Assembly: GCF_000276665.1 (NCBI RefSeq)
Contig: NW_004955502.1
Coordinates: 3,879,883 to 3,943,882 of the forward strand
Direction of reading: 5' to 3'
From: Chinchilla lanigera
Lineage: Eukaryota; Chordata; Mammalia; Rodentia; Chinchillidae
Length of the DNA: 64,000 nt
This document shows, piece after piece, positions 48,013 through 53,482 of this stretch (position 1 is its first letter; every line of letters begins with the position of its first letter). Made by a program: the position numbers and the translations under genes. Under the pieces are notes generated by a model. The model did not search any database. It was not told the DNA's origin and saw only the letters and a list, made by a program, of their open reading frames with translations.

Positions 48013-48103
48013 TTTTTTTATTTTTTATTTTTATGTTAAAGAGAGTAGTAAAAGAACAAAACAGCATACCAACATCACAAACATAAACAAAGCAAAGTAA
48101 GAA

Positions 48104-48380
48104 CATTAAAAGTGATACAGGGCTTCAAAACAAAATGATAGGAATTAACAGTGGTTGTTATATTACATATTGTTGCTCAGATTACCAGATGTAAGAATGG
48201 AAGATTGTTCAAACCATTAAACAGAATAAAAAAATAAACATTAGATAAAACATTAGAGATAATACAGAGTTTCACTAGACAAGATTGTAGGAATTCATCA
48301 ATGGTTGTTGCATTGCATATTGTTGTCTTCAGATCAGTTGCTCAGATTACCAGATATAAGCATGCAAGATTGGTCAGAGT
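48104..48380 (-). repeat. tandem duplication within the L1 3' UTR
   Basis: Two diverged copies of a unit of roughly 135-140 bases lie head to tail (about 48104-48238 and 48239-48378). Each contains, on the plus strand, a GGAATT...GGTTGTT...CATATTGTTG core followed by GCTCAGATTACCAGAT. The other L1 in this window (14547-16702) has only one copy. Confidence 0.75.
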
Positions 48381-51300
48381 ATAAAACATTTTAAGCATCA
48401 ACTGTTCCTTTCAATATACCATCAGACATCAGCACTTATCCCAGCTATTCTTCTATATACATACATAGAGATGATACAGATACAGCTATAGATAATGATT
48501 TTGCCTTCCTTCTTTCTTTTTTCTTCCTTCCCTCATCCTGGTTGTTCCTTCCTTTGAGCAATTTCTTTCCCTTTCCTGTCATCTACTGTACTTTTGAGTT
48601 TTACTTACTCTTTCATGTTCCTACACCAAGGAGACAATATGACATTTACACATGTGGGTCTCATTTATTTCACTTATGAGTATGGTCTCTAGTAGCATCC
48701 ATTTACCCACAAAAGCCTTTTTATCTATTTTTATAGCTGAGTAATACTTCACTGTATAAAAATACCACACCTTTTTTACCCATTCCTCAGTTGGTGGGCA
48801 TCTGGGTTGTGTCCAAGATTTAGCTATAAAAAATTGTGCTTCTATAAACATGGGTGCACATATATCGCTGTGGTATGACGTTTTTAATTCTTCTGGGAAA
48901 ATATCCAGAAGGGGAATAGCTGGGTTAAGTGGAACTTCTAATCCTTCTTTTGTGAGGAATCTCCAAACTGATTTCCACAGTGGCTGCACCAGTCTACACT
49001 CCCACCAACAGTGGAGAGGTGTTCCTTTTTCCCAATAGCCTCACCAGCATTTGTTATTGGTTGATTTCTTGATGATAGCCATTCTTTCTGGGAATCTCAG
49101 TGTTGTTTTAATTTCCATTTCTCAAATGACTAATAATGTTGAACAGTTTTTCATGTATTTATTTGCCATTAATATTTCTTCATCTGAGAAGTGTGTATTC
49201 ATCTCAGATGCCCATTTTTGGATTGGCTCTTTGAATTTTGGGGGCCTGATTTTTTTCAAAGCTTTATATGTTCTAGATAACGGTCCTTTGTCTGAAGGAC
49301 AGCCAGCTAAATTTTTTCCCAATTCATGGGTGTTCTTTTTACTCCCTTGGTGATTTCTTTTGACATGCAAAAACTTTTCAATAAGAGGAGATCCCAGTTG
49401 TTGATTATTTGAAGTATTTCCCATGCAGTTTGGTTTTTGTTCATCAACTCTCTGCCTACCCCTATGTCTTCAAGGTTTTTATCTACTTTGTCTTCCAGTA
49501 GATTTAGTGTTTCTGTTTTAATATTCAAATCTTTGATCCATTTTGACTTTAGTTTAGTGCATGGTGAAAGACATGAGTGTAGTTTTAGTCTTCAGCATGT
49601 GGAAAGCCAGTTTTTCCAGCACTATTTATTAAAGAGGCTATCTTTCTTCCAGTGAACTTGTTGGGCCCCTTTGTCAAAGATAAGGTGGCTGAGTGTGTCT
49701 GTAGCTATATCTGCATCTTCTAATCTGTTCCACTGATCTTCAGGTCTGATTTTTTGTTTTTTTGTTTTTTGTTTTTTGTGTTTTTGGGGTTTTTTTTGCC
49801 AGTACCATGCTGATTTTATCACAGTAGCTTTGTAGTATAATTTCAAGTCAGGAATTGTGATGCCTCTTGCCTTCCCTTTGTTTCCCAGGATTGCTTTTGC
49901 TATTCTAGGCCTATTCTGGTTCCAAATGAATTTTAGGAGTGTTTTCTCTAGATCTGTGAGGTATACTAATGGTATTTTACTTGGGATTGCATTGAATTTG
50001 TACAACCATTTTGGGAGTATGGCCATTTTCACAATGTTAGGTCTTCTTGCCCATGAGCAAGGAATATCTTTCCATTTTCTGATATCCTCTTTGATCTCTT
50101 TTTTCAGAGTATTATAATTTTCACTGTATAGATCTTTTATTAGATTGATTCCTAAGCACTTCATCTTTTTAGATGCTATTTTGAAAGGTGCGGTTTCCCT
50201 AATTTCTCTCTCAGTCTGTTTGTTGTTTGTGTACAGGAATGCTATTGATTTTCAAGTGCTGACTTTGTATGCAGCTATGATACTGAATTTGGTTATTAAA
50301 TCTATAAGCTTTTTGGTGGAGTTTTGGGGGTTTCTATGTAGAGTATCATGTTATCTGCAAATAATGATAATTTCACTTCTTCCTTTCCTATCCTTATTCC
50401 TCTTATTTCTTTCTCTTGTCTAATTGCTCTAGCCAATATTTCCAGAACTATATTGAATAGGAGTGGTGACAGTAGGCATCCTTGTCTTATTCCTGATTTT
50501 AAAGTGAAAGCTTTCAATTTTTGACCATTTCATAAAATGTTGGCCATTGGTTTGTCATAGATGGCTTTGATCAGATTGGGGTAAAGACCATCTATTCCTA
50601 TTTTCTGTAGCATTTTTATCATGAATGAATGTTGGACTTTATTGAAGGCTTTTTCTGCATCAGTGGAGATGATCATGTGATTTTTGTCTTTGGCTCTATT
50701 GATATGGTGTGTTATGTTAATTGATTTATGTATGTTGAACCATGCCTGCATTCCTGGAGTGAATCCCACTCGGTCGTGGTGTATAATCTTCTTGATGATT
50801 TGCTGCATTCTGTTTGCTAGTATTTTATTGAGAATTTTTGCATCTATGTTCATTAGGGAGATTGGCCTGTAGTTCTTTTTTTTTGGTTGGGTTTTTCTCT
50901 GGTTTTGGATAATACTTGCCTCCAGGAGGGAGTTGGGGAGAATTCCTTCCCTTTCAATTTCATTAAAGAGTTTGAGAAGAATTGGTTTTAAATCTTCTCT
51001 AAATTTCTTGTAGAATTCAGGGGTGAATCCATCAGGACCTGGGCTTTTCTTCATTGGCAATTTTTTTTATTACATTCTCAACTTCACTGGCTGATATTGA
51101 GTTATGCAGGATTTTTATATATTCTTCATTCACCTTTGGTAATTCATATATATGTAGAAGTCTGTCCATTTCTTCTGTGTTTTCCATCTTATGAGAGTAA
51201 AGATTTTCAAAGTAGGTATTGATGATCTTCCGAATGTCTATAGGATCTGTAGTGATTTCACCCTTTCATTCCCTATTGCATGTATTTCAGTTTTTCTTTC

Positions 51301-51630
51301 CTTTTTTTTGATAAGGTTAGCTAGGGGTTAATCTATTTTATTTATTCTTTCAAAGAATCAACTCTTTGATTCATTAATTCTTTGTATTTTTTTTTAGTCT
51401 CTATTGAATTAATTTCTGCCCTAAGCTTTATAATTCCCTGTCTTCTTTGGGCTTTGGGTTTGACTTGCTCTTCTTTTTCTAGAAGCTTGTGGTGCAGCAT
51501 TAGGTTGTTCATTTGTGCTTCTTCTGTTTCCCTGAGGTGGGAATTCACCACTATAAATTTCTCTCTGAAGACTGCTTTCATTGTGTCCTGCAGATTCCTG
51601 AAGTTGTATCCACATTTCCATTTGATTGTA

Positions 51631-51741
51631 CCTTTTTTTTTTTTTTTTTTTTTTTTGGTTTTTCTCCAGTACCAGGAACCGAACTCAAGACCTTGTGCTT
51701 GCCAGGCAGATGCTTTGCCACTGAGCTAAATCCCCAGCCCC
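51631..51741 (-). mobile_element. ID-type SINE inserted in L1
   Basis: tRNA-Ala-derived SINE in reverse orientation: T-run, then the complement of the 3' end, B box and A box, ending CCCCAGCCCC. Flanked by the target-site duplication TTTGATTGTA (51621-51630 and 51742-51751), so it inserted after the L1. Confidence 0.92.
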
Positions 51742-52425
51742 TTTGATTGTAAATAGTGTTTAATTTCTTATTTAATTTATCTGGACTCGTTAGTTGTTCA
51801 GGAGGGTGTTATTTAATTTCCATGTATTTATGGAATTTTTGTGATTTCTTTTGTCATTAATTTCCAATTTCATTGCCCTACAGTCTGATAGTATGCATAG
51901 GATAATTTCAGTACCTTTGCATTTACTTAAGCATGTTCTATGTGCTAGCATATGGTCTATTTTAGAGAATGCCCCATGTGCAGCTGAGAAGAATGTGTAT
52001 TCTGATGCTGTTTGATAGAATACTCTGTAAAGGCCTACTAAGTCCATTTGTATTACAGAGGACAAAGTTTAACCATGACAAAGTCTAAAAAGTAGGCAGA
52101 GGTGATAAGATCCTAAATATCACTATCACAAAAATAATCGATTTCTTTCTTTCTGTCTTGCATCTGCTGCATGAGAAACCAAGGAAGTCAACAGGTAATT
52201 GTTCTGTCTGGGGCAACCATGAAATCTTTAAGAAAAGAAAGGTATATTCCCTGTTACCTTTCAGGGCACTATTTTATACATTAAAAAATAAAAACTTCAA
52301 AAATAAGAGTTATTTAGCCTTGTGAATATTTTAAGGTAAAGTTTCTTGAATTTCTGTGAGGAACTCTTCAGGCTACTCAACTTTTCACACCAAGTCATCA
52401 CTCAAAGGTTCCTTTGATACAGCAT

Positions 52426-53378
52426 CTATCCCACAGTGACAAAGCGGCTTCCTCCATTGCTGTATGTGAGAATGGCTCTTTGTTCCTTCAGGATTCCAAA
52501 CTGCTCATGCCAAATCATCCCTGTCTGTTTCCCAACACTACTTATGTCAAATTGTAGGGGGACACCTTTAGGAACTTTCTGTACATCAGACTGTTCCCAT
52601 TCTGTCAAGAGTGAGGGTACAGCAGTACCAGTTAATCCTGGTTTCTGAGTTACTGGGCACTAAACCGCTCCAGGATTGTCAATGGACACAGGCAAAACTC
52701 CATTTGTGGTGGAAGTATGCCACTGACGAGTTCTCTTTGCTAGTGCACCATCTGGCAGTTAGTTGTTCTGTGTTCAACTGGGCCTGAACCTTCAGGCCTC
52801 TTTGGAGAAGAAAAGTTGCCTGATGAGTGTCTGTCTGATGGCTTAATTTATTTCTACTCCTGCTAAAATTAGCTGGAATGTTATTTTTTCTGTTTAACTG
52901 GTTAGGTCTCTTCAGAACTGTAGCTAGCTTTCTTTGCACTTCATTTTGTCTCAGAAGGTTTGCTTTTCTTTTTAACACTGGAAAATACCGTTCTATATTC
53001 TTGTCAGTTAGAGGTGGACGATTCATAGGACTAACTCCTTTCCAAATCCCAGTTGCTTTTCTAGCTGCAAGGCGAATGATAACTCCGTAAGGACATCTCT
53101 TCCCAGGCATTACTTTTCCTCTTCAGCTCAGGCTAGTTTTACAAAACCAGAATTCTGCTGCATTCCCCACCGTACTCTATTCCTGAATTGCCGAGCACTA
53201 CTTTGTTGGAGTCTTTTATTTAGTCTTGGAAAATTCTGCTTCTTTCCTTCCTTTCGATTCAATTTGATAATATCATCTAGAGACATATCAATTTTGTCAA
53301 GATTCTCATCGCCGCGGGCCTTTGGGGGTGGTGACGGGGTCGCTGCGGCCCCCACCAACCGGAACCAAGCCGGTTCAT
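52426..53378 (-). pseudogene. FYTTD1: FYTTD1 (UIF) processed pseudogene
   Basis: An intronless, disabled copy of FYTTD1, whose parent protein (UAP56-interacting factor, about 318 residues) helps export mRNA from the nucleus. In order one can read SPPPKARGDENLDKIDMSLD and the UAP56-binding-type motif LDDIIKLNRKEGKKQNFPRL, then a central stretch with MNRPPLTDKNIERYFPVLKR and NIPANFSR, and a C-terminus with KKVPKG-like VQKVPKGVPLQFDI ending GGSRFVTVG and TAG at 52428-52426. The original ATG is at 53378. Damage: a one-base loss within the first eight codons (about 53360), a second one-base loss near 53141, a TGA at 53125-53123 (from an Arg CGA), a net +1 change near 52741-52762, and a TAG at 52662-52660 (from Gln CAG). 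No introns interrupt it, so it is a retrocopy. About 100 bases of 5' UTR (to about 53482) and about 365 bases of 3' UTR-like sequence (to about 52060) accompany it. It cannot make UIF. Confidence 0.95.
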
Positions 53379-53482
53379 GGCCCCGAGACTAGCCCTGACG
53401 GGTCAGCAGTAGCTGGTAAGGCGGAGTCCCAGGCCCGCCACCTCACTCACACACTCAGACTGACCGCAGAGCGGGTGCACCT

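What the first reader, a model, noticed from the sequence alone, without database searches (positions are those of the whole stretch)
48013..53482. Candidate chimeric retrocopy: FYTTD1 mRNA joined to a 5'-truncated L1 in one insertion
Seen: the FYTTD1 processed pseudogene and the L1 are on the same strand, with FYTTD1 on the 5' side. They meet at about 52060 with no poly(A), no poly(T) and no short repeat. The FYTTD1 part has its 5' UTR but stops inside 3' UTR-like sequence with no AATAAA before the join, while the L1 is 5'-truncated and carries the only A-tail. One pair of diverged repeats (47998-48012 and 53483-53497, 12 of 15) at L1-endonuclease-like sites can be drawn around the whole. Known: L1 reverse transcriptase can switch RNA templates during target-primed reverse transcription, giving such fused copies with U6, 5S, 7SL or mRNA; fusions holding a near-complete mRNA body are rare. 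Inference: this is one event.
Basis: partly seen in the sequence, partly recalled or inferred. Interest (0 to 1): 0.75.

Follow-up and report, generated by a model that had tools for sequence, protein, structure and literature searches.

The report
FYTTD1 retrocopy fused to truncated LINE-1
A dead copy of the FYTTD1 gene's messenger RNA and a broken piece of a LINE-1 jumping element appear to have entered this rodent genome joined together in one insertion, a rare but known kind of accident of the element's copying enzyme.

Summary
On the minus strand an intronless FYTTD1 copy (5'UTR-like start, decayed CDS, 375 nt of 3'UTR-like sequence) abuts a 5'-truncated L1 in the same sense (ORF2 from residue ~174 to its end, then 3'UTR and A-tail). 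The FYTTD1 part has no A-run above 4 and no AATAAA or ATTAAA. One target-site duplication fits the whole unit, 14/17 (53497-53481 and 48012-47996), at TTTT/AAAA. No better match to the 5' copy exists in the window, though five places reach 13/17. Around either part alone the best pairing scores at chance level. The parts look similarly decayed (roughly 5-6% and 6-7%). I conclude one target-primed reverse-transcription event, most likely a switch from L1 RNA to FYTTD1 mRNA. RNA-level fusion, or a parent transcript already carrying the L1, is not excluded: no parent gene, FYTTD1 mRNA or orthologous empty site could be reached. Published mRNA/L1 chimeras (17 in human) are mostly transcript starts on near-full-length L1. 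This one, a whole CDS joined in the 3'UTR to a truncated L1, is an uncommon-looking member of a known kind.

The parts
53481..53497 (-). 5' copy of the target-site duplication, TAAAATCCACACCTCAG, preceded by TTT (L1 endonuclease site TTTT/AAAA, cut between 53497 and 53496)
53379..53480 (-). FYTTD1 5'UTR-like sequence, GC-rich (65% over 53480-53384 against 32% in the 300-bp flank)
   Evidence: inferred from position upstream of the ATG at 53378-53376 and from composition; the mRNA 5' end itself was not available
52426..53378 (-). FYTTD1 coding-sequence copy, intronless, with frameshifts and 2 in-frame stops
   Evidence: Pfam FYTT; protein alignments
52051..52425 (-). FYTTD1 3'UTR-like segment (375 nt), no poly(A), no AATAAA/ATTAAA; identity as 3'UTR inferred only
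52050..52051 (-). FYTTD1/L1 junction (last FYTTD1-like base 52051, first L1 base 52050; a few bp of uncertainty)
48033..52050 (-). 5'-truncated L1: ORF2 from residue ~174 to its end, plus 3'UTR
   Evidence: 3' part also matched by the second L1 in the window
51633..51743 (-). later SINE inserted in the L1, with its own duplication (12/13); tRNA-like by a sub-threshold Rfam match
48008..48032 (-). A-rich tail of the whole unit
47996..48012 (-). 3' copy of the target-site duplication, TAAAATTCATACCTTAG (its first five bases overlap the tail)

Best explanation
One L1-mediated insertion. The L1 endonuclease nicked a TTTT/AAAA site. The L1 reverse transcriptase started on the poly(A) of an L1 RNA and copied its 3'UTR and most of ORF2, then at about ORF2 codon 174 switched to a spliced FYTTD1 mRNA at a position about 375 nt into its 3'UTR. 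It copied that mRNA to its 5' end, and the cDNA was joined to the target with a duplication of about 16 bp. Shown: the two parts, their order and sense, the tail and the flanking repeat. Inferred: that one event made both, and that the joining step was a template switch rather than an RNA fusion. I put the single event at about 0.87 and, given that, template switching at about 0.75. The product is a dead retrocopy; no function is suggested.
For: One duplication fits the whole unit, 14/17, all 3 differences C/T. Score 11 against null means 5.3 and 5.5, p 0.0018 and 0.0032. It is the best non-self match to the 5' copy on both strands of the window. Leaving out the A-run, the 12 nt after the tail match 9/12 the 12 nt after 1 of 157 TTAAAA sites in the window, and that one is at the FYTTD1 5' end; a random 12-mer finds 0.17 such sites on average. 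The same scoring finds 14/15 for the other L1 and 12/13 for the SINE inside this L1; of two further control SINEs one gave 16/19 in partly A-run sequence and one only a T-run, so the latter is uninformative. L1 alone and FYTTD1 alone each score 6. No poly(A) or AATAAA/ATTAAA closes the FYTTD1 part. L1 endonuclease-region proteins (120 used) match nothing in the window outside 51453-52062; 15 FYTTD1 proteins match nothing else except four chance-level hits at 27203-27322, E 0.58-0.75. Decay is similar: FYTTD1 40 of 309 residues, about 6-7% per nucleotide; the two L1 copies differ at 98 of 842 aligned bases, about 6% each, or 33 of 322 at codon positions 1 and 2, about 5% each. The codon before the join is D, hence no AG acceptor, in 34 of 48 L1 relatives, which argues against the splicing route favoured for human mRNA/L1 chimeras (PMC13174262, sections read).
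Against: No orthologous locus, parent gene or FYTTD1 3'UTR could be reached, so single arrival is not shown directly. The duplication has 3 mismatches, and five unrelated places in the window match the 5' copy at 13/17. The A-rich start helps any such match: on the 12 bases after it the 3' copy has 9/12, a level that 62 of 128,000 12-mers reach (self included), ten of them listed at 10/12 or better besides self. The age comparison rests on one other L1 copy, on only part of its alignment (the 3' part is less alike, 80.1% with gaps), and on a reference protein assembled by eye; decay along the FYTTD1 copy is uneven, 7 of 75, 12 of 126 and 21 of 108. No microhomology at the junction can be shown.
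Confidence: 0.65

Rival explanations
1. One insertion of an RNA that was already fused: RNA ligation of a FYTTD1 mRNA fragment to an L1 RNA fragment (RtcB-type, as proposed for U6/L1), or trans-splicing, then ordinary target-primed reverse transcription.
For: It leaves the same structure. Ligation, splicing and template switching are all given as routes by PMC13174262 (sections and passages read).
Against: Splicing: the join lies after the stop codon, in what I take (recalled, not tested) to be the last exon, and 34 of 48 L1 relatives have D, so no AG acceptor, before it; 7 of 48 have E, which could be GAG. Ligation: nothing in the sequence speaks against it.
Confidence: 0.15
2. The parent FYTTD1 gene, or an allele of it, carried this L1 in or after its 3'UTR. 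A FYTTD1 transcript polyadenylated at the L1 end was retrocopied.
For: It gives one duplication, one tail and no FYTTD1 poly(A). It could not be tested at the parent gene.
Against: The L1 would be older than the retrocopy, yet it looks no more decayed (about 5-6% against 6-7%; a rough comparison). The L1 tail runs straight into the duplication.
Confidence: 0.07
3. Two events: a 5'-truncated L1 inserted into an older FYTTD1 pseudogene (or the reverse), or two neighbours brought together by a deletion.
For: L1s are common, and some insertions lack duplications. Whether FYTTD1 3'UTR lies below 48000 could not be tested. A search for T-runs of 8 or more on the + strand (a FYTTD1 tail) between 42000 and 48050 found none, but it also misses the tail of this very unit, so it says little.
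Against: The outer duplication fits the whole unit. Best pairings around the L1 alone and FYTTD1 alone are at chance level.
Confidence: 0.12

Closest known systems
mRNA/LINE-1 chimeras of the human genome (17 in PMC13174262; section read, its table not seen)
   Same: mRNA in sense at the 5' side of an L1, one duplication, L1 endonuclease site, one poly(A) tail
   Different: There 15 of 17 map to transcript starts, six end exactly at splice donors, and the majority have near-full-length L1. Here the whole coding sequence plus part of the 3'UTR is joined to an L1 lacking everything before ORF2 codon ~174, with no splice signature
U6/LINE-1 chimeras (PMC4476161 passages and PMC13174262 sections read)
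   Same: 5'-truncated L1, partner in sense with its own 5' end, duplication and endonuclease site around the whole
   Different: Partner is about 1.4 kb of mRNA rather than a 106-nt nuclear RNA, and the join is internal to the partner
Ordinary processed pseudogene
   Same: Intronless, decayed, at an L1 endonuclease site
   Different: No poly(A) of its own; its 3' end is an L1

Membership tests
L1 chimeric insertion (template-switch type) | Two RNA-derived parts directly joined, partner 5' of L1, same sense | tested here: met
L1 chimeric insertion (template-switch type) | One target-site duplication around the whole and none around each part | tested here: met
   14/17 outside, L1-alone and FYTTD1-alone at chance level; the repeat is diverged and statistically good rather than beyond doubt
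L1 chimeric insertion (template-switch type) | L1 endonuclease site TT/AAAA | tested here: met
   TTTT/AAAA at 53500-53493
L1 chimeric insertion (template-switch type) | Single poly(A), at the L1 end | tested here: met
L1 chimeric insertion (template-switch type) | Both parts present or absent together across species | not testable with these tools
   no mammalian orthologous DNA reached; the genome search unanswered in 12 of 12 attempts
L1 chimera by splicing (human mRNA/L1 class) | Join at an exon end and an L1 splice acceptor | tested here: inconclusive
   join lies after the stop codon in 3'UTR-like sequence; the L1 codon before the join is D, no AG, in 34 of 48 relatives, but E, possibly GAG, in 7 of 48; exon structure not available
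Processed pseudogene of FYTTD1 | Intronless copy of the spliced mRNA, decayed | tested here: met

The most novel reading that the evidence does not exclude
L1 reverse transcriptase switched internally, in the middle of an mRNA's 3'UTR rather than at an RNA end or splice site, and then copied a whole coding mRNA to its cap. This would be a route by which complete gene copies ride on truncated L1s without poly(A)-primed reverse transcription of their own.
Probability: 0.55. Interest if true: 0.5.

Novelty: new member of a known kind. Interest (0 to 1): 0.42.

Why it matters
It adds a non-human case without splice signature to the small set of mRNA/L1 chimeras. Retrocopy pipelines that demand a poly(A) directly after the gene would miss or mis-split such copies. 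If template switching can recruit a near-complete mRNA internally, the share of retrocopies made this way can be measured in any rodent genome by looking for tail-less retrocopies abutting truncated L1s. The copy itself is dead and probably without consequence.

Tried and rejected
Rejected: L1 inserted into FYTTD1, and FYTTD1 inserted beside the L1, each as a lone event, because neither part alone has a duplication above chance level. Splicing is disfavoured for lack of signals but not closed. An older L1 in the parent's 3'UTR is disfavoured by similar decay but not excluded.

Led nowhere: scans of viral contigs for the L1 protein, an L1 DNA pattern and FYTTD1 and of prokaryote genomes for FYTTD1 found no relative. 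The one FYTTD1 piece compared with the PDB had no match. Rfam gave three matches, all below their gathering scores: a tRNA match in the SINE (23 of 29 bits) and two that I take as chance. Source lineage: the copy shares KGVSP and RGK.MPGK with hystricognath proteins and LLDG with Chinchilla alone among those aligned, but its middle piece scores best against Carlito (218 bits against 209 for Chinchilla, whose record has a gap there), and it lacks Chinchilla's extra AR after SSAR, so 'chinchilla-like' is tentative. Literature: FYTTD1 with pseudogene gave 5 papers, seen as a listing only, none about such a copy by its title. Searches (listings, some cut) led to PMC13174262 (sections and passages), PMC4476161, PMC2104539 and PMC6500023 (passages only). 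Buzdin 2003 and 2004 are not held and were not read. No claim that such a case is absent from print is made.
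Full report
What is there. Reading the minus strand 5' to 3': a TTTT/AAAA site; a 17-base repeat copy (53497-53481); about 100 bp of GC-rich FYTTD1 5'UTR-like sequence; the FYTTD1 coding sequence without introns (ATG at 53378, stop ending at 52426); 375 bp of 3'UTR-like sequence; L1 from 52050 to about 48033; an A-rich tail (48032-48008); and the second repeat copy (48012-47996). FYTTD1 identity rests on Pfam FYTT and alignments to mammalian proteins. 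The copy has frame changes and two in-frame stops. Five stretches of the L1 match human ORF2p in order, from residue about 174 to 1272, with spacing that fits an uninterrupted ORF2 plus one later SINE at 51633-51743, which has its own duplication (12/13).

Junction. Of 302 L1 relatives 120 were listed, and in the 48 of those that extend far enough the consensus before QMDL is INKEILELNHTID. The 375 bp before it hold no AATAAA or ATTAAA, no variant signal within 90 nt of the join, and no A-run above 4, so the FYTTD1 part does not end at a poly(A) tail. That this segment is FYTTD1 3'UTR is inferred from its place directly after the stop codon; no mRNA was available to test it.

One event or two. 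The repeats TAAAATCCACACCTCAG and TAAAATTCATACCTTAG match at 14 of 17, and all three differences are C/T. An ungapped score of 11 arises with p 0.0018 and 0.0032 in 6,000 random draws per side. The same scoring gives 6, against null means of 5.3-5.5 from the outer test, for the L1 alone and for FYTTD1 alone. On both strands of the window the best non-self match to the 5' copy lies exactly at the end of the L1 tail, on the same strand, but with a margin of one base: five places reach 13 of 17. The A-run helps: without it the match is 9 of 12, a level that 62 of 128,000 12-mers reach, some of them at 10 or 11. Still, among 157 TTAAAA sites only the one at the FYTTD1 5' end reaches 9 of 12 against the sequence after the tail. 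As controls the scoring recovers 14/15 for the other L1 and 12/13 for the SINE; of two further SINEs one gave 16/19 in partly A-run sequence and one was uninformative.

Age. The FYTTD1 copy differs at 40 of 309 residues from a hystricognath reference assembled by eye, about 6-7% per nucleotide, unevenly (7 of 75, 12 of 126, 21 of 108). The L1 differs from the second L1 in the window at 98 of 842 bases over the ORF2 part compared, about 6% per copy, or 33 of 322 at codon positions 1 and 2, about 5% per copy; the 3' part, not used for this, is less alike (80.1%). The duplication's 3 of 17 fits but is too short to tell. This agrees with one event and gives mild evidence against an old L1 in the parent's 3'UTR.

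Source lineage. The copy shares KGVSP and RGK.MPGK with hystricognath proteins, GAAATPS with Chinchilla (its sixth residue also with Dipodomys), and LLDG with Chinchilla alone of those aligned. Against this, the middle piece scores best with Carlito, and Chinchilla has an extra AR that the copy lacks. A hystricognath parent is likely, a chinchilla-like one tentative.

How it most likely happened. L1 target-primed reverse transcription began on L1 poly(A), copied about 4 kb, then continued on FYTTD1 mRNA. The switch is inferred; RNA ligation would leave the same trace. Splicing, the route favoured for human mRNA/L1 chimeras in PMC13174262 (sections read), finds little support here: the codon before the join is D in 34 of 48 relatives, though E, which could supply AG, in 7.

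Known or new. Chimeric L1 insertions with U6, 5S, other small RNAs and mRNAs are published (PMC13174262, PMC4476161; parts read). Of 17 human mRNA cases, 15 map to transcript starts and the majority have near-full-length L1. Their table was not seen, so a human twin of this one cannot be excluded. I file this as a new member of a known kind, of an uncommon-looking form.

Noticed in passing
14534-14546: A second 5'-truncated L1 (+ strand, about 14547-16702) has 13 extra telomere-like bases (GGTTAGGGTTAAG) between its 5' duplication copy and the point where it begins to match the first L1.
   Followed up: no
53574-53605 and 53658-53689: A 32-nt inverted repeat, 91% complementary, just outside the 5' end of the insertion; unexplained.
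   Followed up: no
51633-51743; also near 4187, 8322, 13346, 15399, 16416, 18975, 20926, 25929, 27744, 35546, 38603, 39027, 44266, 63709, weakly 23577: Many copies of one SINE through the window, tRNA-like by a sub-threshold Rfam match ('ID-like' is recalled). The one in the chimera's L1 came after the L1.
   Followed up: partly
48102-48223 and 48249-48388: A diverged (about 71%) tandem duplication inside the L1 3'UTR.
   Followed up: no
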